DNA from: Pseudomonadota bacterium
GTDB lineage: Bacteria > Pseudomonadota > Gammaproteobacteria > Acidiferrobacterales > Acidiferrobacteraceae
Length of the DNA stretch: 62,083 bases
Direction: 5' to 3'
Assembly: GCA_021819245.1 (NCBI GenBank)
Contig: JAKARI010000008.1
Span: forward strand, 28,225 to 90,307
The notes under the pieces were generated by a model. That model was not told where the DNA came from, searched no databases, and saw nothing but the letters and a program-made list of their open reading frames with translations. Made by a program: the position numbers and the translations under genes. The stretch's first letter is position 1. The number at the start of each line of letters is the position of its first letter. Positions 18,949-37,628 of the stretch are shown here, piece after piece.

Positions 18949-21222
18949 ATGCCGTCAATCGCAATCTCTGTTGGACGTGCGTCTCGGAATATTTTTCACG
19001 CGGCACTCGCAGGCGCCATAGCGGCGGCCTTCCCGGGTCTTGCAAGCGCCCGCGCACGACCTATGGTTGTCGCTGAGCATGGAAAGGTCGTGAAGATTGC
19101 ATCGGTCAGTAAAACCGGCAAGAAGCACAAGGGTCGTGGCCGGCCGGTCGTTATGGGTGGTGTCCACGGGGCGCCGGTGGCAAGCCTAGTCGCTGCGGCC
19201 TTGCATGGCGACGAGATGGCAGAGAATGCGCAGACGGTTCTAAACAGTATGCCAGGGACTAACGTCACTAGCACGAATCCCTTAGGCACGCGGCCCCATA
19301 TCTCGGTCAGGGGTTTTTCGGGGACCCAACTTGGATACACTTTTGACGGCCTGCCGATAGGGGACCTCTTTAGCGGTGGACTGACGGGCGGCAATAATAA
19401 TTACGCCTCTCTTTATAACCTCGTGCCGGTGACCTTGGGCGAGAGTTCGGGGATCAACGTCATTTATGGCCCAGCAGAGCCCTCGGTGGATTCCGTAGGC
19501 GGCATGGGCGGGACCGTGGAATACATGCCGCGTCTGCCGGGAAAGACGTTTTCAGCATCCGTGTTTGGCGGGTTTGGGAGCTTTGATACCAGGAACTATG
19601 GGGCGGAGGTGAATACGGGTGCGTCCAAGAATGGCGGCGCCCTGTTCCTGCGGGCCGCGCACCATAGTACGGGAAATTATCTTGAGAACTCCCCAGACCG
19701 CGGCAATTCCTTCTACGGGGCGTATGTTTTGCCTTCGCGGGGCGGCCGATCGCGGTTTAGTGCGATCGTTCTCTACAATAACAATTCTGGCTACATTCCG
19801 GCGCGCATGCCGGCTGCATTGCTTTCGCTTTACGGGCCCAACTACCAATGGCCGCAAAGCTTCACCTACTCCTATGGCCAAGCGACTCATGAAATGGTCG
19901 TCCTCGGCTACAAGACCGAAATGAATCGCTACATCCTGCTTGATAGCAAGGCCTTTTACGCCTATACCCGTTCCGATCAGCTCACGTATCAGAACCCGGC
20001 GGTGACGCCCACCTATGACGGGAATATCACATACTTTCCGTATGGTAATGGGGCGCCCTATAATCGGTATATCTATGTCACCCGGACCGCAGGCCTAAGC
20101 GAGGCCGTAAACCTCATGCTTGGGCCAGACACGGTGACATTCGGCGGCTTCGGGGCCGCCTCGATCTACCATTCGAGCCAGTACTGGCTCGCAAGTCCAG
20201 GGGCGGCCAGTGTGCCGGGTCAGAATGACGCCTGGGACGAGCATGCCTATCGGCTCTACGGCAAGATCTACGCGCAGGCGGAACTGAAATTCCTGGGCGC
20301 GCTTACGATCGTGCCGGGCGTGAAGGAGGAGTACGCCGATACCGCAATCAACGATATCCCGGGCGCGTACTATCCGGTTGGGGCAAGCAGCGGCAACAAC
20401 TATACCGAGCCGTCACCGTATTTGGGCGCGTCTTATAAGGTGACCCGGGATGTTAAGGTCTATGGCAATGTCGCGCAGGCCTACAAGTTCCCCAATATCT
20501 CCGCATATTATTCGGCCGACTCGTTTGCTACCCCGACCTCGCCGCCACCTGGCATCTCGGTCCTTCCGGAAAGGGTTACGAGCTACCAGATCGGGGTGGC
20601 ATTTCGCAGCCGGCGCACGGCCTTGGGTGCTGCGTTTTACCGCCAGTACTTTGCGCACACCTTTAGTTCGGTATATGACGCCACAAACGGCCTGACGTAT
20701 GAGTACAATTACGGGGCATCGCGCTATACGGGCCTGGACTTGACCGGATCCTATAAGCCAGGCTATGGGCTTAAGATCTATGGGGGCTGGTCTTTGCAGA
20801 GCGCGCAATATACATCCAATGCCACCAACTCGTTTGGCAGCTCGGTCAGCGCCGGCGATCCCAGACAGTATACACCGCATTATTTGGCCAATATTGGCGT
20901 TGAAGAACGATACGCGCGCGTGACGGGCGCTCTCTGGGCCAACTTCGTGGGTTCGCAGGTAATCGGCACATCTGCCGGCGGCCCGACCACGGGTTCGGTG
21001 CCTGCCTATCGGACTGTGAATGCCTCATTGACCTACACCTTGCCCATACACGCCCCGGGCATCAAGTCCTTGAAGGCGTCACTCAACATCACCAACATCT
21101 TGAACAGTCACGCCTACATCTACGAGAAGCAGTTCATCTACCCAAGCGGAACCGGGACCTATAATGAGGCCGAGCCGATGATGCCGCGATTCGTGGGCGT
21201 TGAATTGACGGCCACATTTTAG
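18949..21222 (+). CDS. TonB-dependent outer-membrane receptor (2)
   Basis: A 757-residue receptor. The start at 18949 follows GGGGG and gives a signal peptide ('HAALAGAIAAAFPGLASA'). A basic linker (Lys/Arg rich, about 30-65) precedes the plug (about 75-190: 'ISVRGFSGTQLGYTFDGLPIGDLF', shortened here to its core). The beta-barrel ends with Phe ('VELTATF'). It shares the plug layout of receptor 1 ('FDGLPIGD' against 'FDGIPLND') and the 'NSPDRGNSFYGAYVLP' / 'NSADQNNNFYYAGLLP' region, so the two are paralogs. The ligand is unknown. Position beside the NUP-GGT-GuaD operon and the ExbBD-TonB set suggests a nucleoside, nucleobase or organophosphate. Confidence 0.92.
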   Translation: MPSIAISVGRASRNIFHAALAGAIAAAFPGLASARARPMVVAEHGKVVKIASVSKTGKKHKGRGRPVVMGGVHGAPVASLVAAALHGDEMAENAQTVLNSMPGTNVTSTNPLGTRPHISVRGFSGTQLGYTFDGLPIGDLFSGGLTGGNNNYASLYNLVPVTLGESSGINVIYGPAEPSVDSVGGMGGTVEYMPRLPGKTFSASVFGGFGSFDTRNYGAEVNTGASKNGGALFLRAAHHSTGNYLENSPDRGNSFYGAYVLPSRGGRSRFSAIVLYNNNSGYIPARMPAALLSLYGPNYQWPQSFTYSYGQATHEMVVLGYKTEMNRYILLDSKAFYAYTRSDQLTYQNPAVTPTYDGNITYFPYGNGAPYNRYIYVTRTAGLSEAVNLMLGPDTVTFGGFGAASIYHSSQYWLASPGAASVPGQNDAWDEHAYRLYGKIYAQAELKFLGALTIVPGVKEEYADTAINDIPGAYYPVGASSGNNYTEPSPYLGASYKVTRDVKVYGNVAQAYKFPNISAYYSADSFATPTSPPPGISVLPERVTSYQIGVAFRSRRTALGAAFYRQYFAHTFSSVYDATNGLTYEYNYGASRYTGLDLTGSYKPGYGLKIYGGWSLQSAQYTSNATNSFGSSVSAGDPRQYTPHYLANIGVEERYARVTGALWANFVGSQVIGTSAGGPTTGSVPAYRTVNASLTYTLPIHAPGIKSLKASLNITNILNSHAYIYEKQFIYPSGTGTYNEAEPMMPRFVGVELTATF

Positions 21223-21240
21223 GGATGGCGCCAGATGAGA

Positions 21241-21269
21241 GCCTCCGGCCGATGCGACAGGCCGGGGGC
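21241..21269. terminator. Hairpin between convergent receptor and NUP genes
   Basis: GCCTCCGGCC (21241-21250) pairs with GGCCGGGGGC (21260-21269), with one G-T pair and a 9-base loop. It sits in the 58-base gap between convergent stops, where a bidirectional terminator is expected. No T run is present, so strength is uncertain. Confidence 0.4.
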
Positions 21270-21280
21270 CATGGTTGGTG

Positions 21281-22228
21281 TCAGGGATGGTGCAAGACAA
21301 GACGGGCTATGATGCGCCGCGTGACGAGATAGGCATTGCGGGCGGCGAGTGATCCGGCGTATTCATCACCCTTGGCAATGATAGTGCCGACCGAGGTCGC
21401 AGGCGGCGGGACGTCGATGTCGGACACCGCGCGCACCGACAGGTAGTGGTCCTGAAGGCCGAAGGCGGCAAGGGCAGCGATGTCGCCTAGGTCCTCCATC
21501 GCGGTTGTGGCGTAGCGTGCGCTCCGGTGGGTATAGAGCGCGACGATGTGGCGGGCGATGCGCTGGTTTTGCCGTCCGATCCAGAAGTCGTCCCCCGAGA
21601 CGTTGGCGCCTTGATAGACGCCTGGGTGTTTGTTTAGGCCCAAGGCGGCATCAAGCGGCCGCACAGCGGCGCTGTTGGCAAGCGGCATCGATCGGGTCGC
21701 GGAATAGGCGGCGGATAGGAGCCGCGGGGCCACACGATAGGCGAGCGTATCCCAGGGGTTGTGGGCATAGGGGGGCCGCGGTGGCGCCCAGGCCAGGTGT
21801 CCGGATCGGGTCAGGTAATGGTGGCCAAACCCCCACGAAACGATCCAATTGGCAAGATAGACGGAGCCGAGGGCCGCCTTACCCTGCACGCCGCCTGCGA
21901 TGCCGCTGCGTATGAAGAGCGTGGCGCGCGTGTCGAGCGCCGGGTCGCGCACGATGGCGCTCGTGCGCACGGCGGCGTTGATCTCGCCTTCTCCGGTAAT
22001 CGCCACGCATACGCGGTGCGCATCGCAGATCATGGGCCGGGGAAGTCCCGGAACAGGCACGATCCGGTTGTAGCGCCCGGTGGCCTGCCAGACACGAAAC
22101 TCGGGAGGGAAGGCCGTGAGGACGACGGCCTGGGGGTGGTAAAGGGGCCCCGCCGATGCGAGCGGCGGTGCGCTGAGGATAGCGGCCAGGACTGCATGCC
22201 GTGTCCAATTCCTGCGAATGCCGGTCAT
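21281..22228 (-). CDS. Purine nucleoside permease (NUP) family protein, exported
   Basis: A 315-residue member of the NUP family, which despite its name belongs to the nucleoside phosphorylase superfamily. Family motifs are visible: 'VVLTAFPPEF', 'CVAITGEGEINAA', 'NVSGDDFWIG' and 'TTAMEDLGDIAALAAF'. The start at 22228, after GGGGG, gives a signal peptide ('HAVLAAILSAPPLASA') and no other membrane segment. I infer a periplasmic nucleoside-binding or nucleoside-cleaving enzyme rather than a channel. It is the last gene of the minus operon, 71 bases after the GGT-family gene, and is convergent with receptor 2. Confidence 0.82.
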   Translation of the reverse strand: MTGIRRNWTRHAVLAAILSAPPLASAGPLYHPQAVVLTAFPPEFRVWQATGRYNRIVPVPGLPRPMICDAHRVCVAITGEGEINAAVRTSAIVRDPALDTRATLFIRSGIAGGVQGKAALGSVYLANWIVSWGFGHHYLTRSGHLAWAPPRPPYAHNPWDTLAYRVAPRLLSAAYSATRSMPLANSAAVRPLDAALGLNKHPGVYQGANVSGDDFWIGRQNQRIARHIVALYTHRSARYATTAMEDLGDIAALAAFGLQDHYLSVRAVSDIDVPPPATSVGTIIAKGDEYAGSLAARNAYLVTRRIIARLVLHHP

Positions 22229-22299: not shown

Positions 22300-23871
22300 T
22301 CAAAGCCCCAAACACAGGCCATCGCTGCGTGGGTCATACGCGCCCAGCAGAAGGCCGCCGCTTGCGTCAATGGTGATCGCGCCCGCCTGCCCGGTGCCCG
22401 GATTCAGGGCCGACACGATTTCTATCGGATAGCCAAATTGCTGCAGATCCTGAATCGCAGTCATGTCGGCATTCGTCTCGATCTTAATGCCTTTACGCGT
22501 GTCAAGAAAGGTGGGTCCGACATGGATGCGCGGCCGTGCGAGGGCGGTAAACGGATCAAGACCGAAATCGACAATGCGTGTCAGGATATGCGCCAGTGCC
22601 TGAGGTTGCCCGTCACCGCCTTGCGACCCATAAATAACGCGCACCTTGCCCTGTTTGCGATAGAGCCCCGGACTGAGGGTGTGGAGTGGGCGTTTTCCGG
22701 GGGCCCAGGCATTGGGGTGGCCTATGGTAGGTGAGAAGGCTGCGCCCCGGTTATGCCACAAGACACCCGTGTCTCCGGCCATGACGCCGCTGCCGAAATC
22801 GAAGAATAGGCTCTGAATGAGGCTTACGGACCCTCCAGCCGGATCGCGCACGCCGATCCAGACGGTGTCTCCCGGCAGTGCCGGGTCCATGGCCTCCGGC
22901 GCGGATGCGCCCGCATCGTGATGGCCATGGACGGGTCCTTCGGAATGGAGCATGGCATGCACGGGCACGGGGACGAAGGTAGGATCCGCCACGAAGCGGT
23001 TGCGGTCGGCTAGGGCTGTTTTTATCGCCTCGATGAGCAGGACGTAAAAGCGTGTATCGTCGCCACGCGCTGGCGGGATCTCGAACCGGTTCAAGAGGTG
23101 CAGAATCTGCAAGGCCGTGACCCCCTGGGTAGGCGGGGGCATATTAAAGGCCACTCCGCCCCGATAGGAAACGGCTAGGGGCCTCACATAGAGGGCCCGC
23201 GTAGCCTTAAGATCCGCGCTTGTGACGACGCTACCCGCGGCACGAAGTCCGGCGGCAAGCCGTGCCGCGAGCGGCCCTTCGTAGAAGTGGCGGGGACCAT
23301 GTTCAGCGAGTTCGCTAAGGGTGGCCGCGAGCGCGCCTTGCGTCTGCCGGCAGCCGGTTTCGCATCGTCCATGCGGCCCATCGAAGGTATCCTTGAAGCC
23401 GGGCTGGCCGCTTAATTCCTCGCGATGGGTCTTGTACCAGAAGGCTTGCGATTGACTTACAGCATAACCGTCCTTCGCGCGCGCGATGGCGGGTGCCATA
23501 ATGGCCGGCCAGCCAAGCCTCCCGGCCCAGGATTCGCGACTGAACTGGTAGGCAAGTCCCCAGCTATCGACGGCGCCGGCGGTCGTGAAGGCGGCGGCAG
23601 GGCCCCGCTGCGCGTGTTCCGCATCTGGCGGTTTGGCGGCGGCCGCCTGTCCGATACCGAGGATGCCAAGCGGTTCGCCTTCGTCTTTGGCGACCAGCCA
23701 GCAGGCGTCGCCTCCCAGCCCCGTCATGTGCGGGTAGACGACGCACAGCATGGCGGCGGCCGCCAATGCCGCTTCTATGGCGTTACCTCCCGCGCGCAAA
23801 ATGGTGAGCCCGGCGCCGGTGGCGTCCGGATGCGGGGTTGTGATAAGCGCGGTGCGCGACTGGGCTAGCAT
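22300..23871 (-). CDS. Gamma-glutamyltransferase-family Ntn hydrolase (HpxW-like)
   Basis: A 523-residue cytoplasmic (no signal peptide) member of the GGT family. It has the N-terminal 'AGLTILRAGGNAIEAALA' and 'VVYPHMTGLGGDACWL' motifs. The self-processing nucleophile Thr is in 'PGDTVWIGVRD', followed by the 'FDFGSGVMAGDTGVL' segment. True GGTs are usually exported. Cytoplasmic relatives include HpxW, an oxamate amidohydrolase of purine catabolism, which fits the neighbourhood. I infer an amidohydrolase acting on a small acid amide from ring degradation. It overlaps the guanine-deaminase-like gene by 7 bases. Confidence 0.8.
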   Translation of the reverse strand: MLAQSRTALITTPHPDATGAGLTILRAGGNAIEAALAAAAMLCVVYPHMTGLGGDACWLVAKDEGEPLGILGIGQAAAAKPPDAEHAQRGPAAAFTTAGAVDSWGLAYQFSRESWAGRLGWPAIMAPAIARAKDGYAVSQSQAFWYKTHREELSGQPGFKDTFDGPHGRCETGCRQTQGALAATLSELAEHGPRHFYEGPLAARLAAGLRAAGSVVTSADLKATRALYVRPLAVSYRGGVAFNMPPPTQGVTALQILHLLNRFEIPPARGDDTRFYVLLIEAIKTALADRNRFVADPTFVPVPVHAMLHSEGPVHGHHDAGASAPEAMDPALPGDTVWIGVRDPAGGSVSLIQSLFFDFGSGVMAGDTGVLWHNRGAAFSPTIGHPNAWAPGKRPLHTLSPGLYRKQGKVRVIYGSQGGDGQPQALAHILTRIVDFGLDPFTALARPRIHVGPTFLDTRKGIKIETNADMTAIQDLQQFGYPIEIVSALNPGTGQAGAITIDASGGLLLGAYDPRSDGLCLGL

Positions 23872-25127
23872 GGCGGCGCCGGGCTTGATGGCCGTGGCCG
23901 AGGGTTCATGAAGACAGGGTAACCGGCGATCCATGTGCCAAGCGGGCGCCGCTCGAGTTCGGCCATGGGGCCTTGCACGAGATCTTCGAACCATGCCTGC
24001 GGTGAGCGTAGGCGTGTCGCGCGCGGCATGAGTACGAAGTCGCCGCGCTTGCCCAGGCTCAAACTACCAGCTATTGCCCCGCGTCCCATGGCGTGCGCCC
24101 CGGCGATGGTTGCATAAAATAAGGCCGCCTCGGGTGTTACATGCACGCCAGCTGCCCGGTGCTGGCTCAGGAATCTCTGCATCACATGCAGCATGCTGTG
24201 ACTGGGCCCTGCGCCCACGTCGGATGCCAGCGCAAACGGGATCTTGTAGCGCCACGCCGTGTCGAGGTCAAAGCGGCCGCTGTCTAGGGCCTCGTTGCTT
24301 GATGGGCAGTGCGCTATCCAGCAGCCGCGCGCCGCGAGACACGACCACTCCCGCTCGCTTAAGTGAATGCAATGGCCGAGTACCGTGCGAGGGCCAAGGA
24401 GTCCTGCCCGGTCGTAGACATCGGTATAGTCGGTGGCCTCCGGGAACAGGCGCTCGACCTCCCGCACCTCGGCCTCCGATTCGGCAAGATGGGTTTGTAC
24501 GGCAAGCCCTTGATACCGCGCAAAGGCGCCCAGGGCGGCGAGATCGCGGGCCGTGCAATTGAGCGCAAATCGTGGCGTGACCGCGTAGTGGGCGCGCCCG
24601 ATGGTGTCTGGCAAAACTGCGAGATCAGACGGCGGCTTGGCGCTCGCGGCCGTGAGGTCGGCGGGCGCGTTCGTGGTCATGATCACATTTCCCGTAATCC
24701 AGTCGCCGCGCCGTGCCTCATGGGCAATGCGAGCTGCCGCGGGGTGTGGGCTTGAATAGCTCATGCCCATTACCGTGCCGGCGGCAAGGCAGTCGGCAAA
24801 AAACATCTCCGCGCGCTCGCGCGCGAGCGCGGTATCGGCGTAGCGCGCCTCTTCCGGCCAGATGTGGGTCGCAAGCCATGGCAAGAGCGCCTGGGCATAG
24901 TGCCCGCGGACGGCGTGCTGAACCCAATGGATATGGATGTCGGCGAAACCGGGCACTATCACTCCATCGAGTTCGATCGGTTCCAGGGGATGGCTCTTAA
25001 CAACTTCGTCGAACCGTCCAAGGGTGCCGATCGCGCCGTCTTCGACAAGGAGACCGCCATCATCCAGGAATTCCCACGATTGGGCATCGATCGGATTGAG
25101 AATGGCGGCGCGAAACAGGGTTCTCAT
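23865..25127 (-). CDS. Guanine-deaminase-like amidohydrolase
   Basis: A 420-residue metal-dependent amidohydrolase closest in pattern to guanine deaminase. It has '[12 protein letters not shown]' (metal His65/His67), '[12 protein letters not shown]', '[12 protein letters not shown]', '[16 protein letters not shown]' and '[15 protein letters not shown]' (metal Asp). Guanine deaminase gives xanthine plus ammonia. Related enzymes act on other aminated heterocycles such as 8-oxoguanine, cytosine derivatives and triazines, so the substrate is not certain. It overlaps the upstream cysteine hydrolase by ATGA, showing a tight operon. Confidence 0.84.
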
Positions 25128-26266: not shown

Positions 26267-26544
26267 AGGTCGGTCTCAAGCCAAAATTAAAGATGCGGCG
26301 TCAGGTCAGTCGAAGCAGTAAACGTGCCAATCCGAAAGGCCCCGGGTGGCAAGTCCTTCCCGCTCCATGTGCGCCCCGCGTCCCTGCAGGCTCACCGTTT
26401 TCGTGCATTGGAGAAATGCTCGTGCCCTAGCAGGGGGCGCGGTTTTATCTGGCAAGGCCCAGCGCGTGTGCGTGATACGCGTGCGTCATGTGCAGTGAGC
26501 GGGAAATTTTGCTTGTTTCGGGCCGGCCCCAATAGGGCAGCGCG

Positions 26545-26554: not shown

Positions 26555-26604
26555 GATGCCGTTAAGGAAGGTCCTGCCGGCGGCCGCGACGGCACGGAAA
26601 ATGC

Positions 26605-26614
26605 TGTGTACACA
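26605..26614. promoter_or_regulatory. TGTGTACACA palindrome at start of hydroxylase operon
   Basis: A perfect 10-bp palindrome immediately before the presumed ATG at 26618, 60 bases from the ATGTATACAA site. Its centre GTAC differs from the other sites, so it may be a weaker second operator or coincidence. It occupies the place where a ribosome site would be expected. Confidence 0.35.
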
Positions 26615-30197: not shown

Positions 30198-30756
30198 GGA
30201 GAAATCTATCTTTCCGGTGCCGATCGTGGACGCCACGGCTGACAACATAAAGGACTACGGCGTCATGATAGGCGCCGATGTTCACAGGCCGGGCCTTGCC
30301 ATCCCGTTCTATGCAAGCGTCGAGGAGGGGCAAAATCTGGAGTTTTCCTACCATGGGCGGGCGGTGGTGCGCACTGCGCGCATCAGCAAGCGGTCCTCGG
30401 ACCTCATATGGTTCGAACGGCACATGCGCATGACGCAAATCTTCATAGGGCTTGGCGATCAGCCATTTGTCATGGTGCTGGCCAGGCCAAACCATGAGTC
30501 GGGCCGCGACGTTCCGGACTTCGCGGACATGGTGGCGTTCCGAATGCCCGCAGGCCACGGGGTCATGATTCATAAGGGAACATGGCATGACTTTCCAATG
30601 GCAATCGATAAGCCGGTGACGGTGTTTACCGCAAACTCCGAGGAGGTCGTGAACGCTCTGTGTGCGGTCCCTGGTCCTCAGGAGATCGATAACGGTGACG
30701 TCTTTAAGATTAATATCGCCGCGCGCACCGGACGAACTCCGAGGGTCCCGTTTTGA
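30184..30756 (+). CDS. Ureidoglycolate lyase-family protein (AllA-like)
   Basis: A 190-residue protein with the AllA/ureidoglycolate lyase cupin-like fold. Signs are 'MRMTQIFIGLGDQPFVMVLA' (core shown) and the motif 'GHGVMIHKGTWHDFP', which carries the active-site His residues. Classical AllA cleaves ureidoglycolate to glyoxylate and urea at the end of purine breakdown. No allantoinase or allantoicase is in the window, so this enzyme may instead act on another ureido acid, such as the ring-opening product of its neighbour. The start has a GGGGG-containing ribosome site, and the stop overlaps the next ATG (TGATG). Confidence 0.8.
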   Translation: MLVPEEKSIFPVPIVDATADNIKDYGVMIGADVHRPGLAIPFYASVEEGQNLEFSYHGRAVVRTARISKRSSDLIWFERHMRMTQIFIGLGDQPFVMVLARPNHESGRDVPDFADMVAFRMPAGHGVMIHKGTWHDFPMAIDKPVTVFTANSEEVVNALCAVPGPQEIDNGDVFKINIAARTGRTPRVPF

Positions 30757-31832
30757 TGCGCGCCGATGTCCATTCATTTAGCGCGTCGGCGCCGGATGAT
30801 GTCGAAGGGCTTACGCAAGCCTTGCGGGACCGTCGTATCGTAGCCGCCGACATCATCGCTGTGATCGGTAAGACCGAAGGAAACGGGGCGGGCAATGATT
30901 TCACCAGGGCGATGGCCACAGACGCATTCACGCGGCTATTGGCCGGTAATCTCGGGATTCCCGAAAGCGAAGTGGCATCACGGATCATGCTGTCGTTTTC
31001 CGGGGGCTCGGAGGGTGTGATAACACCCCATTATCTGGTGTGCACGAAACACGCATCGGCACCGCCAAGCGAGCCCGCGGCGCGCAAGCGCCTGGCGCTT
31101 GCCGTAGGCCGCACGCGGCCCTTCGATCCCGCGGAAGTGGGCACCATGGCAATGCTGCGCGAGACCGAAGCGGCGGTGCGCCGGGCGATGTCAGAGTTGC
31201 GCGTGCCCGCAGACGATATCCATCTCGTACATGTCAAGGCAGCCCTGCCGGCCGCGGAAGCCGGGGCCGCAGGTCTTCCGCGGTGCACCATGGCCCAGGC
31301 GCGGGCCGCCTCGGCACTGGGTGTCGCGGCAGCCCTTGGCGAAGTCGACGCCGATGAACTGACCGCCGATGCTATAGGTGTGCGCCGGGATCTCTATTCG
31401 CGGGTTGCCAATGTTTCGGCCAAACCAGGGTTGCGTGTCAGCGAAATCCTCGTGTTCGCGAACTCGCCCTATTGGAGCAGTCCCTGCCGGATCCATCATG
31501 CCGTCATGCGCGACATCATCGATATCGAGCCGGTGCGCGTGCTTTTGGCATCCGCCGGCCTGTCGGCGTGCGGCCAGCTTGCGCCCGAGCAGACGCGTCG
31601 CATCCGTGCGCTATTTGCCAAGTCTGATGCCGACCCGAGCCATATGATACGCGGCCGCCGCCATACCATGTGGAGCGACGAGGACTTCAGCGACATGCGG
31701 TATTCGCGGTGCGTGGTCGGTGGTGTGCTAGCGGCCCTAACGGGGACTACTGCGGTTTATGTCTCCACGCGTGCCGAACACATGGGGCCATCCGGAGGGG
31801 GTCCTGTGGCGGTGATTGTCGATGATGAGTGA
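30756..31832 (+). CDS. Ring-opening amidohydrolase (barbiturase / cyanuric acid amidohydrolase family)
   Basis: A 358-residue member of the rare 'Toblerone-fold' family, whose known activities are barbiturase and cyanuric acid amidohydrolase. The three repeat units keep all three Ser-Lys pairs: Lys39 ('GKTEGNGAGNDFTR') with Ser82 ('FSGGSEG'), Lys161 ('HVKAALP') with Ser221 ('NVSAKPG'), and Lys289 ('LFAKSDADP') with Ser337 ('VYVSTRAEHMGPSGGGP'). Repeat B is shorter than I recall for cyanuric acid amidohydrolase. The enzyme should hydrolyse a cyclic imide/ureide ring. Barbiturate (from uracil by a molybdenum hydroxylase) or cyanurate are the candidate substrates; which one is not decidable here. 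Confidence 0.87.
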   Translation: MRADVHSFSASAPDDVEGLTQALRDRRIVAADIIAVIGKTEGNGAGNDFTRAMATDAFTRLLAGNLGIPESEVASRIMLSFSGGSEGVITPHYLVCTKHASAPPSEPAARKRLALAVGRTRPFDPAEVGTMAMLRETEAAVRRAMSELRVPADDIHLVHVKAALPAAEAGAAGLPRCTMAQARAASALGVAAALGEVDADELTADAIGVRRDLYSRVANVSAKPGLRVSEILVFANSPYWSSPCRIHHAVMRDIIDIEPVRVLLASAGLSACGQLAPEQTRRIRALFAKSDADPSHMIRGRRHTMWSDEDFSDMRYSRCVVGGVLAALTGTTAVYVSTRAEHMGPSGGGPVAVIVDDE

Positions 31833-32751
31833 GCCAGACCCGCTTATCGAGGTCATCATCACGCAGGTGGCGGGATCGGCGCCCACTGCGATCGGCGATT
31901 CCCTGCATTTGGGCGTGTCCGGGTGGCGCGGCTCAGTGGGTGGTGGCGCGCTCGAGGAGGCCTTGAAGGTCCGCGCTGTGGCGTGCCGCAGGCAGGGGGC
32001 GGGGGCGATCGTAGAATTCCCCCTGAATTCCGAGCGCGACCAATGTTGCGGGGGCCGTGTGACAGCTGTCATTTGCGTGGTGCCGCGGGCCGAGGCGGGA
32101 TGGGTCGAGGATGACGTGCCGCGCCTCTATGGATGGGATCAGGGCAATCCGCCGCACCTCATGGGGGCATGGTGTCGGGGTCTATGGCAAGCAGGTTCAG
32201 CCTGCGGCGAGCCCGATGTAGCGGCGCGTGAATGGCCCACTGGCCTGTGCACGTGGAAAGGACGGATGTATTTTGTAAAGCGTCCTGCGCCCCGGCATCC
32301 GCTCTGGCTTTTCGGTGCCGGCCCTGTTGGCGCGGCGATCGCGGACATGGCGTGCCGCCTCGACTATGATGTATCGGTTTTCGATGCGCGGCCCGAATGG
32401 AACGCCGCCTCGCGGTTTCCGCCCGAAGTCGTACGCCATTGCAATGCCATGCCGCCTGCGGATGATACCGGCCTCACGCCTGCGGCGCTTGTGATGACCT
32501 ATAGTCATGGCCTCGATCTTGCGATCGCCACCACCCTGCTTGCGCGCAGGGCCGCCTATGTCGGCGTCATCGGCAGCCGCACGAAGGCCGCCCTTTTCAA
32601 GAGGCGGCTAAAAGATCAGGGGTTCGGCGAAAAGGACCTTGCCCGGCTGCATATGCCAATGGGGGTCCCGGGTCTTGGCAAGAAGCCCTATGAGGTGGCG
32701 GTGGCGGTCCTTGCCGAACTCTTGCAGGCCCGTCAGGGGGAAGGCCCGTGA
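31822..32751 (+). CDS. xdhC: XdhC-family molybdenum hydroxylase maturation factor
   Basis: A 309-residue XdhC/CoxI protein that binds molybdenum cofactor, helps sulfurate it, and inserts it into xanthine dehydrogenase-type enzymes. The N-terminal XdhC_CoxI domain shows 'VAGSAPTAIGDSLHL' and 'GSVGGGALEEALK'. The C-terminal Rossmann domain shows 'PLWLFGAGPVGAAIADMA' and 'YVGVIGSRTKAALF'. Its presence in the operon confirms that the hydroxylase needs a sulfurated molybdenum site. The start overlaps the ring-opening gene by 11 bases (ATG 31822 or 31825). Confidence 0.88.
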   Translation: MMSEPDPLIEVIITQVAGSAPTAIGDSLHLGVSGWRGSVGGGALEEALKVRAVACRRQGAGAIVEFPLNSERDQCCGGRVTAVICVVPRAEAGWVEDDVPRLYGWDQGNPPHLMGAWCRGLWQAGSACGEPDVAAREWPTGLCTWKGRMYFVKRPAPRHPLWLFGAGPVGAAIADMACRLDYDVSVFDARPEWNAASRFPPEVVRHCNAMPPADDTGLTPAALVMTYSHGLDLAIATTLLARRAAYVGVIGSRTKAALFKRRLKDQGFGEKDLARLHMPMGVPGLGKKPYEVAVAVLAELLQARQGEGP

Positions 32752-33338
32752 TGGCCGTAGTGCTGGCGGGGGGGCGATCGTCCCGCGCGCGCGGCCACAA
32801 GGCCTGCCGGCGCATTGCCGGCCGCCCCTGGCTTCATCATCAGTGCCGCCATTTGCGTCGGCAAGGATTCCGGCAGGTGCGGGTCGTATTAGGCTTTTCC
32901 GCTATGAACACCGCGCGCTGCGTGCCTCCGGGCGTGCGGCGGATCTGGAACCGGAATAGGGCGCTTGGGTCATTTGCAAGCCTGCAGGCGGGAGTGCGGG
33001 CTGCGCGCGGCGGTGTCCTCGTGGTGCCGGTAGACGCCTGGCCCGCGGCACCCTCCACGCTCTATCGCCTCCGCCAGGCGCTGCGCGGGGCGCCCGCCGC
33101 CGTGCCCGCGTGGCGCGGGCAGGGAGGACATCCCGTGCTGCTGTCTGGCCAATCGGCGGCAATCCTTGCCGCGTCCCCGTTGTCCGGCACCGCGCGCTTA
33201 GACCGCGTGCTTGCGGCGGTGCCTGCGCGCCGTATTGCGGTGCGGGACCGGTCCGTACGGGGCAATATGAACCGCCGCCGGGACTGGCTGGTCTATTTGC
33301 GATGCCGAAATCTACGGAGGCCCCTATGGACAGGCTAG
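32751..33338 (+). CDS. MobA/MocA-like NTP transferase
   Basis: A 195-residue nucleotidyltransferase-like protein. The nucleotide-binding start 'AVVLAGGRSSRARGHKACRRIAGRPWL' (cut here to its core LAGGRSSRARGHK) follows the MobA/MocA pattern LAGGxSSRMGxxK. 'VLVVPVDAWPAAPSTL' stands where the metal-binding DxP segment is expected. The predicted role is attaching cytidine to molybdopterin or related cofactor maturation for the operon's hydroxylase. It is rich in Arg and degenerate compared with typical MocA, so activity is less sure. It overlaps gntR by 13 bases. Confidence 0.72.
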   Translation: MAVVLAGGRSSRARGHKACRRIAGRPWLHHQCRHLRRQGFRQVRVVLGFSAMNTARCVPPGVRRIWNRNRALGSFASLQAGVRAARGGVLVVPVDAWPAAPSTLYRLRQALRGAPAAVPAWRGQGGHPVLLSGQSAAILAASPLSGTARLDRVLAAVPARRIAVRDRSVRGNMNRRRDWLVYLRCRNLRRPLWTG

Positions 33339-34021
33339 CCCCGCGCATCGGCGCGGCTGCTATCTATGAGCGTCTCAAGGAGATGATCCTTAACTTCGAG
33401 ATCTATCCTGGAAGCCGCATCACCGAGTCTGATATCGCATCGCATTTCGGGGTGAGCCGGACGCCCGTGCGCGAGGCACTGCAGCGGCTCGCTCAGGAAG
33501 GCCAGATTAGTATCCGCACCAAACAGGGATGCTTCGTGCGCCAGATCAGCATATCCGAACTGTCGCAGTTTTACCGAGTACGCACCGCGCTCGAATGCCT
33601 GTCTTTGGAGATCGCAGCACGATCCATGGCAAAAGACGCACTGCGCGCCCTTGCCGACGAGTGGGATCCAGCGCGATGCACGGCTGCCCCCACGGACCTA
33701 AGCCGCATGGTGGAAAAGGAGGAGTCCTTTCATATGACGCTAGCCTACGGCGGGGGGAACCGGGCGTTGGCAAAACACCTGGATGACATCAATGAGAGGA
33801 TCCGTGTCATAAGGCGGCTCGACTTCACGGCCGGATTCCGCGTCGAACGGACCTATGAAGAGCACAACCGCATAGCGCACCTGCTTTTGGACGGAGATGT
33901 CTCCGCTGCCAAGTCGCTCATGGCGGATCATATACAGCGAAGTGAAAAGTTCGCGCGCAGCGTGACGCTCGAACAGCTCGCCCGCAACGATGCCAAGACC
34001 GCGCAGCTCGCTACCAGATGA
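33326..34021 (+). CDS. GntR-family regulator with FCD domain
   Basis: A 231-residue transcription factor. The winged helix-turn-helix (about 10-75) contains 'ITESDIASHFGVSRTPVREALQRLAQEG', the signature of the GntR family (core: GVSRTPVREAL). The C-terminal all-helical FCD ligand-binding domain (about 85-220) has metal/ligand residues such as 'EESFHMTLAYGGGN' and 'EHNRIAHLLLDGD'. The start at 33326 follows GGAGG (33316-33320). It most likely controls this locus; palindromes of the FCD-GntR type lie upstream of the hydroxylase operon and of exbB. Confidence 0.9.
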   Translation: MDRLAPRIGAAAIYERLKEMILNFEIYPGSRITESDIASHFGVSRTPVREALQRLAQEGQISIRTKQGCFVRQISISELSQFYRVRTALECLSLEIAARSMAKDALRALADEWDPARCTAAPTDLSRMVEKEESFHMTLAYGGGNRALAKHLDDINERIRVIRRLDFTAGFRVERTYEEHNRIAHLLLDGDVSAAKSLMADHIQRSEKFARSVTLEQLARNDAKTAQLATR

Positions 34022-34062: not shown

Positions 34063-34297
34063 ATGCCCATGGGCGGGCCCTCAAGCGCTTAAGGGCGAGG
34101 GCGGTATCCGGGCGGCCTGCGCGCGGGTATGCGATTTGGCGACCGAAATCTCTTGAAGGCTCCGGGAGGCGTTTGGCACGAAACATGCTTTGTGTGCATG
34201 CAAGGATGTATTCATGCCCGGCGATGGGATGGCCATAGCCTGGCGTTCGAACAGAGTGCGGCCAGGGTCCTCAAAGGTCCAAGCGAAGGAGACAAAT

Positions 34298-35014
34298 ATG
34301 GTAGTTCTGCAATATATCGTCCATCTGGCCAATTACTCGGATGGCGTGCTGTACGTTTTGGCGCTCGTGATGACGCTGGAGATAGCGGTTATCATCGACA
34401 GACTGTGGTTTCTGCGGCGGGGCCTGAGGAAAGGCAAGGAGGTAATTCAAGACATAGCGCGGCGCGGTAGGGTGCAGCGCGAAGACCTCAAGGAGATCGT
34501 CGAGCGCTGCGCGGATCTCCCAGAGGCGCGCCTTGTCGAGGTGGCACAGCGTTATTTCGGGCTTATTCACCACTACGGGAGTGCGCGCGGCGAGGCGTTT
34601 GCCAATCGTCTCGATGAAGCCATTTTCCTGATCACGCCGACTCTCGACAAGAGGCTGTGGCTTCTTGATACGATAGTGACGCTTGCACCTCTTCTCGGAC
34701 TTTTTGGGACAATCATAGGGATGTTTCACGCATTTTCCATATTGGCCGTACCGGGCCATGCGCCGACATCAGTTACGGCGGGCGTGGCGGATGCCTTGAT
34801 CGCCACCGCGACCGGGCTTTTTATTGCCATGGTGGGTCTTATAAGCTTCAATGCGTTCAATAACGCCATAGAAAAAATCGAGCACCAACTTGAGTCTTTG
34901 AAGGTTCTCTTGCTAAATCGCATGGATGGTGCGCCCGTATGGCCAGAAGACGGTCAGGTATGGCCGGAACATGGTGAAGACCGGCAGCAGGCGGCCGGGC
35001 GAGTGATGATCTAG
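34298..35014 (+). CDS. exbB: ExbB/TolQ-family proton channel protein
   Basis: A 238-residue MotA/TolQ/ExbB protein. Three transmembrane helices are visible (about 13-33, 140-165, 175-205), with the family core 'LLGLFGTIIGMFHAF' and 'VADALIATATGLFIAMVGL'. The start at 34298 follows GAAGGA. With ExbD it uses proton-motive force to energise TonB. Because it is followed by exbD and tonB and then a nucleobase permease, it is a locus-specific energy module rather than the cell's housekeeping set. Confidence 0.9.
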   Translation: MVVLQYIVHLANYSDGVLYVLALVMTLEIAVIIDRLWFLRRGLRKGKEVIQDIARRGRVQREDLKEIVERCADLPEARLVEVAQRYFGLIHHYGSARGEAFANRLDEAIFLITPTLDKRLWLLDTIVTLAPLLGLFGTIIGMFHAFSILAVPGHAPTSVTAGVADALIATATGLFIAMVGLISFNAFNNAIEKIEHQLESLKVLLLNRMDGAPVWPEDGQVWPEHGEDRQQAAGRVMI

Positions 35015-35022: not shown

Positions 35023-35424
35023 ATGACGCCACGCACGAGGCGACGCAAAAGGGGCAGGGTGGAAATCATCCCCATGATTGATGTCATGCTGTTTCTGCTC
35101 GTGTTTTTCATCATGATCACGATGCAGATGATCTCGGACCGCGGTCTCCACCTCAATCTGCCAACCTCGAGTCAGGCGCAAGCATTGCCGCGGCCGCATT
35201 TCGTCGTTAACGTGAAAACACCGGGTGAGGTGATCGTAAACGGCAAGCATTACGGCCTGGCGTCGCTTGTCACCATGCTGCATTCGGATGGGGATCCTGC
35301 CAAGACCCAGGTGACGATCGCAGCCGACAAGAAGGTGCCGTTTCAAAAATTCGTGCAGGTCATGGACGCGTGCCGCAAGGCCGGCGTGAGCCAGATCGGG
35401 ATCGCGACGGAGCCTGGACCATGA
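35023..35424 (+). CDS. exbD: ExbD/TolR-family protein
   Basis: A 133-residue ExbD. A basic N-terminus ('RTRRRKRGRVEI') is followed by one transmembrane helix. That helix starts with the conserved proton-carrying Asp in 'IPMIDVMLFLLVFFIM'. A periplasmic alpha/beta domain follows (about 55-130, 'VTIAADKKVPFQKFVQVMD'). It starts 8 bases after exbB. Confidence 0.93.
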   Translation: MTPRTRRRKRGRVEIIPMIDVMLFLLVFFIMITMQMISDRGLHLNLPTSSQAQALPRPHFVVNVKTPGEVIVNGKHYGLASLVTMLHSDGDPAKTQVTIAADKKVPFQKFVQVMDACRKAGVSQIGIATEPGP

Positions 35425-35494
35425 ACGGGGGTGCCCGGCGGGCATGCAGAAGGCGCGCGCGGGGGAATGGGGGGCAAGGGCGCGGGGGGCCGGT

Positions 35495-36190
35495 ATGAGT
35501 GTCTTGAGCTGGTCCGGCGGGCGTGCGCAAGGCAGTGACGATAGCGATGAATCGCGGGTGTTCGCATATGCCCTGGCCGGGGCCCTGGTATTGCAGGCGG
35601 CGCTGGTCGCGACTGTGGCGTTCTGGCCGTATCGTAAACCCCAGACCGTACTGCCAAGCTCAATCGCAGTCGAGATGGTGACTTTACCCCGGCCTGCGCC
35701 ATCTGCGCCCAAGCCCAGGCCTCGGCCTGTGGTACCGGTAGTCCATAAGGTCGAGCCCAAGCCGCTTGTGACCAAGGAACGGGCACGCGAAGTGGTGCCG
35801 CCGCGCGTAAGGTCCAAGGTGGCCCCAAGGTCCATGCCGATAACGAAACCCCGAAAAACCGTGCCGGCAGCCAGTCCCTCGCCGCAGATGATCGCATCAC
35901 TCATGTCGCGCTATGTAGGGCTTGTCAGGCCCATGATAGAAGGGCACCTGCGCGTGCCGGCCCTGCTCAAGGCTATGGGCATGTCCGGGCATTCCACGAT
36001 AGAATTTCGCCTGTCGCCGCGCGGGCGCCTCCTGTGGGCCAAGGTCCTTGTGCCAAGCCGCATCCGCGCCGTGAACGCCGCTGCGCTCGCGGCCGTCGAG
36101 GGCAGCCACTACCCACAGTTTTTGCGGCATATGCCGAGACGGGATACGACCTTCGAGATCACCGTACACATCAGCGGGGACGGTTCGTGA
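35495..36190 (+). CDS. tonB: TonB-family energy transducer
   Basis: A TonB protein of 231 residues from ATG 35495 (an in-frame ATG at 35444 would add 17). It has one N-terminal membrane anchor ('YALAGALVLQAALVATVAFW'), a Pro/Lys/Arg-rich periplasm-spanning linker (about 60-135, 'PKPRPRPVVPVVHKVEPKP'), and a C-terminal TonB domain ('GHSTIEFRLSPRGRLLWAKV') that touches receptor TonB boxes. A GGGGGG run precedes the chosen start. It presumably energises the two receptors at 15491-21222. Confidence 0.87.
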   Translation: MSVLSWSGGRAQGSDDSDESRVFAYALAGALVLQAALVATVAFWPYRKPQTVLPSSIAVEMVTLPRPAPSAPKPRPRPVVPVVHKVEPKPLVTKERAREVVPPRVRSKVAPRSMPITKPRKTVPAASPSPQMIASLMSRYVGLVRPMIEGHLRVPALLKAMGMSGHSTIEFRLSPRGRLLWAKVLVPSRIRAVNAAALAAVEGSHYPQFLRHMPRRDTTFEITVHISGDGS

Positions 36191-36218
36191 CCGGCAGTGG
36201 AAACGGGGAGGACAAGCT

Positions 36219-37628
36219 ATGACACGCGAACGGCATTCTCTGGGCGCGACCGGCACAGACCAGCGCCGCGGGTCGGTGTGGGGGGTGTTCTTCATATGGC
36301 TTGCCGCCACCATGACGGCCTCGACCATCCCCCTGGGAGGCATTATGGCGCAGATGTTTCCCGGGGCGCCGTTTTTGCCGGTGATCCTGGCGGCGTCTGG
36401 GTTTTTCCTGCTGGTCGGCATCATAAGCATCCCGGGATTTGTCTATGGCCTGCCGACGATGGTGGTCTCAGAGCATCTGTTCGGCGCGCGGGTCAATCGC
36501 CTGATATCGGCGGCCAACTGGCTTTCCCAGGTTGGGTGGGAGAGCGTCGTACTGGTGATCGTCATCTATATCGTCCGCAGCCTGCTGTTTCCCGGGGACA
36601 CGGTGTACCCGCTGAGTGCGACATTGACCGCGCTTGTGGTATCGCTGTTTGCCAACTTCACGGTGCCACTTTTGGGGTACCGGGCGATCGTGGTTTCGCA
36701 AAAGGCCGGGGCCATCGTGTTGATGGTCTTTTCCGTGGTGATTTTCCTTCACATCCCCGCGAGGAATAGCCTTATTCTGGGGCATACGGTCATGTCGGGC
36801 ACTACGCTGCGCGATGCCCTCGGGGCCCTGTCCCTGGGGCTCATGGGCGGCGCCTTGTCATGGACGATGTTCTCCTCGGACTATTCGCGGTTTATGCGCC
36901 CGGGGACATCGCTTGCGCGCGTGGCCATGGCGCCGGCCATCGGGGGATTTCTTGGGAATTTCGTTATTCTTCTGGTGTCTGTGGCCCTCTATCAGGCGGG
37001 CGGGGTCGCATTCGGGAAAGACGGTATTGCATTCCCGCGCGGCATGTTCCATAGCGAGTTTTTGTATTACGGTTTTTGCATATTCGCGGTTATCGGACTG
37101 CTCGCCTCAAACTTTCTCAATGCATTTAGCTCGGCCTTCAGTCTCGCCGTTATGCTGCGCCGCGATTTGAATCGCCGATTATCGACCTTCGTAGACGCCT
37201 CCATAGGGACAGCGATCGCCGTGTGGATTCTGTTTTACGCACCGACCTTCCTCGATGTATTTGAGGTCTTTCTGTCGCTTATTATCATTGTCGCTGCTCC
37301 TTGGACTGGCGTGGTCGCAGTCGAGATCCTGGCAGATCGCATTGGCGGCGGCCTGCCCGCCGATCCGGCATCGTGGCTTGCAGGCCGCCGCCGGCGAACG
37401 GTAGTCATGGCGGTGGCGGTTGCGGCAAGCGCGCTTTTTTCGAGCAACCCGCTATGGACCGGTTATGGCGCCCAGGCGCTTGGCGGCGTCGACATTTCGC
37501 CGCTTGTGGGACTCATCCTTGCGGCGCTGCTGACGGGGGCCGCGCGCCTCGTGCGGGGTGCGGGCGCGCAGGATGGGCTTGATCCGGCCAACGCCGGCGC
37601 GCAGGCGTTGCAGGGGCCCTCGCGATGA
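36219..37628 (+). CDS. NCS1-family nucleobase permease (CodB-like)
   Basis: A 469-residue inner-membrane carrier with about 12 hydrophobic helices of the nucleobase:cation symporter-1 family (cytosine, purine, allantoin and related compounds). Family features include the TM1 region 'WLAATMTASTIPLGGIMA', 'ANWLSQVGWESVVL', 'WTMFSSDYSRFM' (the characteristic DYSR motif) and 'APWTGVVAVEI'. It starts 28 bases after tonB and would bring the released base into the cytoplasm. Substrate specificity cannot be called from sequence. Confidence 0.88.
   Translation: MTRERHSLGATGTDQRRGSVWGVFFIWLAATMTASTIPLGGIMAQMFPGAPFLPVILAASGFFLLVGIISIPGFVYGLPTMVVSEHLFGARVNRLISAANWLSQVGWESVVLVIVIYIVRSLLFPGDTVYPLSATLTALVVSLFANFTVPLLGYRAIVVSQKAGAIVLMVFSVVIFLHIPARNSLILGHTVMSGTTLRDALGALSLGLMGGALSWTMFSSDYSRFMRPGTSLARVAMAPAIGGFLGNFVILLVSVALYQAGGVAFGKDGIAFPRGMFHSEFLYYGFCIFAVIGLLASNFLNAFSSAFSLAVMLRRDLNRRLSTFVDASIGTAIAVWILFYAPTFLDVFEVFLSLIIIVAAPWTGVVAVEILADRIGGGLPADPASWLAGRRRRTVVMAVAVAASALFSSNPLWTGYGAQALGGVDISPLVGLILAALLTGAARLVRGAGAQDGLDPANAGAQALQGPSR

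What the first reader, a model, noticed from the sequence alone, without database searches (positions are those of the whole stretch)
18949..37628. Candidate undescribed outer-membrane-to-ring-opening nucleobase scavenging system
One contiguous region joins TonB receptors, an exported NUP-family protein, private ExbB-ExbD-TonB, an NCS1 permease, a guanine-deaminase-like enzyme, a molybdenum hydroxylase with its XdhC and MobA-like helpers, a barbiturase/cyanurase-type ring opener, an AllA-like lyase, a BiuH-like cysteine hydrolase and a GGT-family hydrolase under one GntR regulator. The sequence shows the genes and their tight operons. The joint pathway is inference. I know of no described system that powers nucleobase capture with its own TonB module and links it to hydrolytic ring opening. 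Urate oxidase and allantoinase are absent, so this is not the standard purine route.
Basis: partly seen in the sequence, partly recalled or inferred. Interest (0 to 1): 0.88.

Follow-up and report, generated by a model that had tools for sequence, protein, structure and literature searches.

The report
Nitrogen-scavenging island for nucleobase ring opening
A gene island in an uncultured bacterium appears to import nucleosides or nucleobases, oxidise them and open their rings by an unusual route that ends in biuret and ammonia instead of the usual uric acid pathway; the key ring-opening enzyme belongs to a distinct, untested branch of the cyanuric acid hydrolase family.

Summary
In four of the 13 other genus genomes searched the 18-gene island is complete and contiguous; two more carry it up to a contig end. 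A core (molybdenum hydroxylase, AllA-like protein, AtzD-like ring opener, XdhC) recurs in another order and on Acidithiobacillus caldus megaplasmids, with different back ends: TrtA-like/AtzE/AtzH/allophanate hydrolase, or AtzGEH plus a GGT-like enzyme. The window's BiuH passes the biuret-hydrolase equivalog; full-length AtzF lies elsewhere in the genome. The AtzD-like protein keeps the three Ser-Lys dyads and arginines of cyanuric acid hydrolases, lacks the barbiturase glutamine, and belongs to a branch altered beside every catalytic serine. Uricase, HIU hydrolase and OHCU decarboxylase were not found in any island-bearing genome searched. Sigma-54-like sites precede the TonB receptor and all three operons and are conserved in the genus, which fits nitrogen control. 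Best reading: nitrogen scavenging from purine-type nucleosides/bases through a Mo-hydroxylase/AtzD-like ring-opening route to biuret, allophanate and ammonia. What the ring opener acts on is unknown; a triazine or pyrimidine substrate, or two merely neighbouring modules, remain possible. No description was found in the open-licence papers searched.

The parts
15491..18043 (-). TBDT1, TonB-dependent receptor (adjacent block, not part of the island in all relatives)
   Evidence: Pfam; beside the island in G009, in two frames in G005, 51-54% remnant pieces in G012
18880..18896 (+). sigma-54-like GG-N10-GC site before TBDT2 (weaker, 10 of 13)
   Evidence: the same place scores 11-12 in G009, G005, G012, G003, G013
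18949..21222 (+).
   Evidence: Pfam; 45% identical to the receptor of the A. caldus SM-1 cluster
21281..22228 (-). NUP-family protein with N-terminal hydrophobic signal-like segment (by eye), probable periplasmic nucleosidase/phosphorylase
   Evidence: PF06516; N-termini; homologues inside the Xdh operons of G317, G800, G411
22300..23871 (-). GGT-family N-terminal-nucleophile hydrolase, no obvious signal peptide; HpxW-like candidate
   Evidence: PF01019; fails TIGR00066; 37.6% to the GGT of the A. caldus cluster
23865..25127 (-). guanine-deaminase-like amidohydrolase
   Evidence: best solved relative 6ohb guanine deaminase, 211 bits
25124..25825 (-). BiuH, biuret amidohydrolase
   Evidence: NF050097 400.5 vs cut-off 370; 6xjm 346 bits; alignment A3
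25835..26266 (-). small cupin (ChrR cupin-like)
   Evidence: PF12973; 50% over 98 aa to the cupin of a Rhizobium atzD cluster
26314..26330 (-). sigma-54-like site of the cupin-BiuH-GDA-GGT-NUP operon
26591..26605 (+). sigma-54-like site of the Xdh operon
26645..28876 (+). XdhMo, molybdenum-binding subunit (GTG start proposed from the A. caldus alignment)
28873..29334 (+). [2Fe-2S] subunit (start proposed by eye)
29331..30197 (+). FAD-binding subunit (start proposed by eye)
30184..30756 (+). AllA-like (Ureidogly_lyase family) protein
   Evidence: PF04115 48.6 bits; profile relation to AllA structures; directly before AtzD, or 1.3 kb before it in G411, in every full-length XDH-linked locus seen
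30753..31832 (+). AtzD-like ring-opening amidohydrolase, XDH-linked subfamily
   Evidence: model with CAH fold
31816..32751 (+). XdhC molybdenum-cofactor insertion factor
32748..33338 (+). MobA-like nucleotidyltransferase
33302..34021 (+). GntR-FCD transcriptional regulator (start proposed by eye)
34173..34189 (+). sigma-54-like site of the exbB-exbD-tonB-NCS1 operon
34298..35014 (+).
35023..35424 (+). ExbD
35444..36190 (+). TonB
   Evidence: TonB_C match at window 35957-36169
36219..37628 (+). NCS1-family permease
   Evidence: PF02133 56.8 bits

Best explanation
The island is a nitrogen-scavenging system, probably switched on through sigma-54. Nucleosides or bases cross the outer membrane through TBDT2, energised by the island's own ExbB-ExbD-TonB. 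The exported NUP-family protein splits nucleosides; NCS1 carries the base inward. The guanine-deaminase-like enzyme and the molybdenum hydroxylase (with XdhC and MobA-like helpers) deaminate and oxidise it. A distinct branch of the AtzD family, together with the AllA-like protein, then opens the oxidised ring hydrolytically, giving linear ureides. BiuH (perhaps with the cupin) turns biuret into allophanate; an AtzF encoded elsewhere in the genome releases ammonia and CO2; the GGT-like hydrolase takes an amide side product such as oxamate. Shown: gene content, conservation, family assignments, promoter-like sites, no detectable uricase, HIUH or OHCU decarboxylase. Inferred: substrate, order of steps, every activity. 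Which compound the AtzD-like enzyme opens is not known.
For: Synteny: of 14 genus genomes searched, 7 (own included) carry the AtzD gene; all 18 genes TBDT2-to-NCS1 lie together in the window, G009, G005, G012 and G003; the G002 contig starts inside GGT and the G013 contig ends inside AtzD. Core elsewhere: G317 and G800 have XdhMo-NUP-FeS-FAD-AllA-AtzD-XdhC-TrtA-like-AtzE-HpxZ/AtzH-MobA opposite ABC-transporter ATPase and permease genes, a Bmp-type binding protein, adenosine deaminase and AtzF; G411 has XdhMo-NUP-FeS-FAD-AllA-AtzD-XdhC-AtzE-AtzH-MobA-NCS1; two A. caldus megaplasmids have TonB receptor-XdhMo-FeS-FAD-AllA-AtzD-XdhC-DUF4089-AtzE-HpxZ-GGT. AtzD, AllA and XdhMo co-diverge (pairwise identities correlate 0.95-0.98 over 36 pairs). 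Purine side: guanine-deaminase-like, adenosine deaminase over cut-off in G317, NUP in the clusters of three genera, residues at bovine XO E802, R880, F914, F1009 kept (roles and numbering recalled). Ureide side: BiuH equivalog, AtzF over cut-off in 6 of 6 island-bearing genus genomes searched, AtzE/HpxZ over cut-off in G317. Uricase 0 of 12; HIUH and OHCU decarboxylase 1 of 12 each, that one (G226) having only a canonical AtzD. Sigma-54-like sites scoring 10 or more of 13 in 26 of 26 genus upstream regions tested; 7% of random 320-bp stretches of the window reach 10.
Against: No step is tested. The characterised nearest relatives of the AtzD-like protein open cyanuric acid, and four other XDH-linked members (G317, G411, A. 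caldus, G069: 394.4, 394.6, 372.3, 392.1) do pass the CAH equivalog cut-off of 360 that the window (353) and the cut-short G013 copy (303) miss, so the family cut-off does not separate the branch. Bmp-type transporters also sit beside atzD in a Rhizobium cluster without purine genes in the stretch seen, so that transporter does not prove nucleosides. No enzyme in the cluster is a known oxidant of urate, and I cannot write a complete, balanced route from urate to biuret. Guanine-deaminase and XDH curated cut-offs are not reached. G069 has only AllA plus AtzD among the genes scanned. G411 and A. caldus show no sigma-54-like site before the Xdh operon (best 6 of 13). G411 has no AtzF over the cut-off, and G004, without detected AtzD, has a split one. 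The genus genomes are related, so promoter and synteny counts are not independent.
Confidence: 0.5

Rival explanations
1. Triazine scavenging: the Mo-hydroxylase oxidises a triazine that still has a ring C-H (such as 5-azauracil, the decarboxylation product of oxonate) to cyanurate, which AtzD opens to carboxybiuret/biuret for BiuH and AtzF. The purine-like front enzymes act on triazine analogues.
For: AtzD best matches are cyanuric acid hydrolases and all three dyads and arginines are kept; four other XDH-linked members pass the CAH equivalog; BiuH and AtzF complete the known cyanurate pathway; uric acid oxidation can chemically give triuret and cyanuric acid (PMC7948467, figure-legend passage); oxonic acid decarboxylates to 5-azauracil (PMC4011208, passages). 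That xanthine or aldehyde oxidase turns oxonate/5-azauracil into cyanurate is recalled only.
Against: Ten XDH-linked AtzDs differ from seven canonical ones at 16 fixed positions, among them positions beside each catalytic serine (13 of the 16 also hold when A. caldus and three further canonical proteins are compared); G411 carries both a canonical copy and an XDH-linked one; adenosine deaminase, guanine-deaminase-like and NUP genes have no need in a cyanurate pathway.
Confidence: 0.2
2. Two neighbouring, co-regulated modules: purine salvage and oxidation (NUP, GDA, Xdh) on one side and ureide or cyanurate use (AtzD, BiuH) on the other, without a shared intermediate.
For: Each half resembles a known module; both halves share sigma-54-like sites, which alone could explain co-location under nitrogen control; G069 keeps AllA-AtzD without Xdh beside it.
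Against: AllA and AtzD lie between the FAD subunit and XdhC inside the Mo-hydroxylase operon in four genera; canonical atzD loci (0 of 12 within about 1.5 kb) lack a detectable AllA; co-divergence.
Confidence: 0.17
3. Oxidative pyrimidine route: uracil or thymine to barbiturate by the Mo-hydroxylase, ring opening to ureidomalonate, then ureide hydrolases.
For: Family homology to barbiturase (5hwe 165 bits); NCS1 carriers often take pyrimidines (recalled); a cytidine-deaminase-family gene lies nearby at 12031-12465. The route itself is recalled.
Against: Position R188 of CAH, Gln in barbiturases (PMC4051656, passages), is Arg here; guanine-deaminase-like and BiuH genes do not fit; barbiturase is the more distant relative.
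Confidence: 0.08

Closest known systems
Cyanuric acid catabolism operon atzDGEHF of Pseudomonas sp. ADP, and the AtzD-BiuH(-TrtA)-AtzF route of Rhizobium
   Same: AtzD-family ring opener feeding BiuH or AtzGE/AtzH and allophanate hydrolase; a related cupin in a Rhizobium atzD cluster
   Different: Here the ring opener is a distinct branch placed inside a Mo-hydroxylase operon with an AllA-like gene, nucleoside/base enzymes and a TonB module; atzE and atzH are not among the island's genes
HPX/allantoin-type purine catabolism (hpx genes of Klebsiella; recalled) and ggt-atzG-atzE-atzH clusters (PMC6219798, section 14 read)
   Same: HpxZ, AtzE/HpxY and GGT/HpxW-like genes beside Xdh genes in A. 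caldus; AllA-like protein
   Different: No uricase, HIU hydrolase or OHCU decarboxylase found in the island-bearing genomes searched; an AtzD-like gene instead
Triuret/biuret gene clusters of nitrifiers (PMC12625717, passages)
   Same: biuH/trtA/atzF with BmpA-NupABC transporters or cytosine permease; the authors suspect an upstream purine link
   Different: The authors report no atzD and no known upstream purine genes in those nitrifier genomes; here the Mo-hydroxylase, deaminase and NUP genes are in the same clusters
Barbiturase / oxidative pyrimidine route of Rhodococcus (recalled)
   Same: Same enzyme fold; oxidation followed by imide hydrolysis
   Different: Arg, not Gln, at the CAH R188 position; different partner genes

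Membership tests
Biuret amidohydrolase BiuH | NCBIfam NF050097 equivalog cut-off | tested here: met
   400.5 vs 370 bits
Biuret amidohydrolase BiuH | BiuH rather than TrtA second-shell residues (Tyr, Tyr, Asp, Val at TrtA F35, N41, E160, I205; PMC7948467) | tested here: inconclusive
   3 of 4 BiuH-type by eye on alignment A3 (Y, Y, D; but Ile at the fourth); the G317 homologue looks TrtA-type at all 4 by eye (sequence against the Rhizobium TrtA-type row)
Biuret amidohydrolase BiuH | hydrolyses biuret | not testable with these tools
   needs enzyme assay
Cyanuric acid hydrolase (AtzD/TrzD) | three Ser-Lys dyads and three Arg (PMC4051656) | tested here: met
   window K40/S83, K162/S222, K290/S338 and R52, R184, R319 invariant with CAHs
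Cyanuric acid hydrolase (AtzD/TrzD) | NCBIfam NF052395 equivalog cut-off 360 | tested here: not met
   window 353, G013 cut short 303; but G317 394.4, G411 394.6, G069 392.1 and A. caldus 372.3 pass; canonical copies 456.8-580. Window protein not filed as a CAH; the miss is narrow
Barbiturase | Gln at the position of CAH Arg188 | tested here: not met
   Arg184 in the window protein
Xanthine dehydrogenase | substrate-pocket residues of bovine XO E802, R880, F914, F1009 (roles and numbering recalled) | tested here: met
   alignment to xanthine oxidoreductase 2ckj; E1261 lies outside the alignment
Xanthine dehydrogenase | NCBIfam equivalog cut-offs | tested here: not met
   best pucD 451.6 vs 783.65
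Ureidoglycolate lyase AllA | NCBIfam equivalog cut-offs | tested here: not met
   best 35.2 vs 260; Pfam family cut-off met 48.6 vs 23
Gamma-glutamyltransferase | TIGR00066 equivalog cut-off | tested here: not met
   297.7 vs 357.85
Oxamate amidohydrolase HpxW | activity on oxamate | not testable with these tools
   only relation and gene company in A. caldus
Guanine deaminase | TIGR02967 / NF006679 cut-offs | tested here: not met
   301.8 vs 375.4 and 333.2 vs 351
Standard uricase-HIUH-OHCU purine route | uricase, HIU hydrolase, OHCU decarboxylase genes | tested here: not met
   0 of 12, and 1 of 12 each (the exception G226 has no XDH-linked AtzD); HpxO only far below cut-off. PuuD-type urate oxidase not tested; G013 not searched

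The most novel reading that the evidence does not exclude
The core Mo-hydroxylase/AllA-like/AtzD-like unit is a uricase-independent purine breakdown route: the oxidised purine is opened by a new branch of Toblerone-fold hydrolases and the AllA-like protein so that its ring atoms leave as triuret, biuret or carboxybiuret (for TrtA, BiuH or AtzE/AtzH, then allophanate hydrolase) and as an oxalyl fragment (for HpxYZ/HpxW-like enzymes). In the window genus and A. caldus it is supplied by a TonB-dependent receptor, in the window genus with its own ExbB-ExbD-TonB and sigma-54 control. This would give triuret, biuret and AtzD-family enzymes a natural origin in purine metabolism.
Probability: 0.3. Interest if true: 0.85.

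Novelty: new variant of a known kind. Interest (0 to 1): 0.62.

Why it matters
The natural role of cyanuric-acid-hydrolase-type enzymes, biuret hydrolase and triuret hydrolase is unsettled: PMC4051656 calls cyanuric acid not known as a natural product (passage), a 2025 paper reports it in Paramecium secretions (PMC12342508, passages), and nitrifier clusters hint at a purine link without the upstream genes (PMC12625717, passages). Here Mo-hydroxylase, nucleoside/base enzymes and these ureide enzymes sit together in several genera. An enzyme assay on one purified protein would decide whether AtzD-family enzymes take part in purine metabolism.

Tried and rejected
GntR operator: a palindrome TTGTATACAA (one exact, one with a mismatch) lies before two operons of the window but was not found within one mismatch in the stretches of six relatives, so I dropped it. 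NtrC-like sites: the consensus scan found fewer matches than shuffles (12 vs 24.3); no claim is made. Sigma-70 and terminator scans were at chance level (5 vs 7.2 and 14 vs 13.3). The idea that NUP location follows transporter type was rejected: signal-like segments are seen by eye in all seven NUP homologues printed. Structure of the AllA-like protein: low confidence (mean pLDDT 63.1); its best fold matches are AllA structures at TM about 0.4, so no metal-site argument is made. Viral contigs: no relative. NUP and NCS1 have no solved relative by sequence at E 0.01. Paper searches bearing on the system: (0 papers); listings and abstract starts seen, plus the passages and sections cited; no description of it found in this open-licence library. 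Three papers asked for by id were not held.

Direct hydrolysis of urate by the AtzD-like enzyme, oxidative C4=C5 cleavage of urate, and oxonate as the opened ring were considered as chemistry; none is tested, and each leaves at least one gene unexplained.

Full report
What was checked. The window lies in a 2.25 Mb genome (G000, 54 contigs, 91.3% complete). The island proper runs from TBDT2 (18949) to NCS1 (37628): TBDT2 rightward; NUP, GGT-like, guanine-deaminase-like, BiuH and a small cupin leftward; XdhMo, FeS, FAD, AllA-like, AtzD-like, XdhC, MobA-like and GntR rightward; ExbB, ExbD, TonB, NCS1 rightward. The phosphoesterase/TBDT1 pair at 12568-18043 adjoins it.

Conservation. The AtzD protein was sought in 96 genomes, own included: 7 of 14 of the genus (own included) have it, plus G069 from another family, and G032 has a weak match with stops. 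tblastn of the window's proteins on fetched stretches shows all 18 island genes together in G009, G005, G012 and G003; in G002 the contig begins inside GGT and in G013 (56-58% AtzD identity) it ends inside AtzD.

The core outside the genus. A search for PF09663 gave 5 of 369 genomes of the class, own included. Stretches around the hits showed, in G317, XdhMo-NUP-FeS-FAD-AllA-AtzD-XdhC-isochorismatase-amidase-AtzH-like-MobA, with ABC-transporter ATPase and permease genes, a Bmp-type binding protein, adenosine deaminase and allophanate hydrolase divergently placed. G800 repeats this arrangement. G411 has XdhMo-NUP-FeS-FAD-AllA-(1.3 kb)-AtzD-XdhC-amidase-AtzH-like-MobA-NCS1. Two Acidithiobacillus caldus megaplasmids have TonB receptor-XdhMo-FeS-FAD-ureidoglycolate lyase-ring-opening amidohydrolase-XdhC-DUF4089-AtzE-HpxZ-GGT beside a LysR gene; in SM-1 an unannotated MobA-like frame fills the gap before GGT. 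An IS5 lies between receptor and XdhMo in both, and in MTH-04 further insertion sequences interrupt the receptor and separate FAD from AllA. The SM-1 receptor is 45% identical to TBDT2. G069 has AllA-AtzD alone among the neighbours scanned. AtzD, AllA and XdhMo identities over the same 36 genome pairs (nine genomes) correlate at 0.95-0.98, as expected of a unit inherited together.

A distinct branch of ring opener. In a sample of 398 genomes of the phylum, 14 match the XDH-linked profile; G000 and G069 score above 600 bits, the other 12 score 300.8-374.2. None of those 12 loci shows an AllA homologue within about 1.5 kb, whereas the full-length XDH-linked loci do. Aligned with seven canonical sequences, ten XDH-linked ones differ at 16 fixed positions, allowing one gap, among them Ser81-Phe82 before Ser83, Lys224-Pro225-Gly226 after Ser222, Thr339-Arg340 after Ser338, and Ala164/Pro166 after Lys162, i.e. 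beside each of the three catalytic serines. When A. caldus and three more canonical proteins are compared, A. caldus departs at 82 (Leu) and 226 (Ala) and G013 at 166 (Ala), while no canonical protein shares an XDH-linked residue at any of the 16; 13 hold throughout. The dyads and arginines themselves are kept (numbering from PMC4051656, passages). The curated CAH cut-off of 360 does not separate the branch: the window (353) and the cut-short G013 copy (303) miss it, but G317, G411, G069 and A. caldus pass at 372-395, canonical copies at 457-580. The AlphaFold model (mean pLDDT 85.4) matches cyanuric acid hydrolases best (6bum); solved members of the family also include barbiturase and an entry titled orotic acid hydrolase, so substrates vary in this fold. 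G411 holds both a canonical copy (nearest to 6bum) and an XDH-linked copy. I therefore do not file the window protein as a cyanuric acid hydrolase, but it may still act on cyanurate.

Ureide end. The window's BiuH passes the BiuH equivalog and is 63% identical to the BiuH-type Rhizobium protein. By eye it has BiuH-type residues at three of four positions that separate BiuH from TrtA in PMC7948467 (sections 3 and 12, part 1 of 2 of each, section 17 and passages read); the G317 homologue looks TrtA-type at all four. Allophanate hydrolase over the TIGR02713 cut-off is present in 6 of 6 island-bearing genus genomes searched, in G317, in G226 and as a split gene in G004, but not in G010, G069 or G411. 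In G000 it lies on another contig beside an APS kinase gene, with no urea carboxylase among the four neighbours scanned. PMC6219798 (section 14 read) already noted that atzG-atzE-atzH clusters occur widely, often with ggt and rarely with atzD or atzF.

Purine end. The guanine-deaminase-like protein is closest to guanine deaminase among solved structures but falls short of the curated cut-offs. The Mo-subunit keeps the residues aligned with E803, R881, F915 and F1010 of xanthine oxidoreductase 2ckj, which I recall as part of the xanthine pocket; curated XDH cut-offs are not reached. NUP homologues have signal-like N-termini by eye in all seven printed. Uricase: 0 of 12 genomes (two control genomes ring). 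HIU hydrolase and OHCU decarboxylase: 1 of 12 each, G226, which has one, canonical, AtzD. HpxO: only matches up to 55.6 bits against a cut-off of 500. Allantoinase: over cut-off in G226 only. G800 was not; G010 was in those but not in 81, 82, 117; G013 was in none. PuuD was not tested.

Control. Three exact GGCACG-N5-TGCW sites occur in the whole window, expected 0.62 by shuffling (2 of 100 shuffles reach 3), and they lie before the cupin, Xdh and ExbB operons. With one mismatch allowed the count (21 vs 14.7 expected) is unremarkable. In 26 of 26 upstream regions of these three operons and TBDT2 in seven genomes of the genus a GG-N10-GC site scores 10-12 of 13 (random stretches of the window: 7% reach 10, 0.9% reach 11). 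The Xdh promoters of G317 and G800 score 11 and 12, the A. caldus receptor 11; the Xdh operons of G411 and A. caldus (6 each) and AllA of G069 (9) have none to speak of. The regions were set by hand from alignments and the genomes are related. Sigma-54 control fits nitrogen scavenging but is not proof of it. I did not check for rpoN in these genomes.

TonB module. Four island-bearing genomes have 4 TonB_C matches each and three genus genomes without a detected AtzD have 3 each at E 0.001, a few of them below the curated cut-off, so the island brings one extra TonB; 'private' is a fair but untested word.

Mechanism. The best-supported account is capture, nucleoside cleavage, base import, deamination and Mo-dependent oxidation, then hydrolytic ring opening and ureide hydrolysis to ammonia. 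The missing piece is chemical: no step that turns urate into a ring the AtzD-like enzyme could open to biuret is known to me, and the AllA-like protein, always near it, has no assigned role. PMC7948467 notes that chemical oxidation of uric acid yields triuret and cyanuric acid, and PMC12625717 (passages) suspects a purine origin of the substrates of biuH clusters in nitrifiers. The clusters described here place the oxidising enzyme and the ureide enzymes together, which makes the question testable.

Verdict. I rate it a new variant of a known kind, with a distinct branch of ring opener at its centre.

Noticed in passing
L052 (Serratia liquefaciens plasmid NZ_OQ821180.1) 8001-15642: A TrzD-like ring-opening amidohydrolase, an NCS2 nucleobase symporter, DUF2877, fdrA and DUF1116 genes (allFGH-type) and carbamate kinase follow an IS5 element; ring-opening amidohydrolases at the same 40.7% identity are listed on many Enterobacterales plasmids.
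   Followed up: no
L033 10410-11273 (G411): An AurF-type N-oxygenase-family gene lies just upstream of the Xdh operon, and a sigma-54 activator gene at 6101-8029.
   Followed up: no
L037 19608-20111 (A. caldus SM-1 megaplasmid): A MobA-like reading frame is not listed in the gene table shown.
   Followed up: partly
G801:C1:467305-467532: A short piece of an AtzD match (75 positions) in a close relative of G317, possibly a decayed cluster.
   Followed up: no
window 12031-12465: A cytidine/deoxycytidylate-deaminase-family gene lies just beyond the phosphoesterase/TBDT1 block.
   Followed up: partly
window 12568-15615: Large phosphoesterase-family protein (PF04185) next to TBDT1, seen beside the island only in G005 and G009 among the relatives whose contigs reach that far.
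   Followed up: partly
window 43369-47368: KdpA and a P-type ATPase gene follow downstream, apparently unrelated to the island.
   Followed up: no
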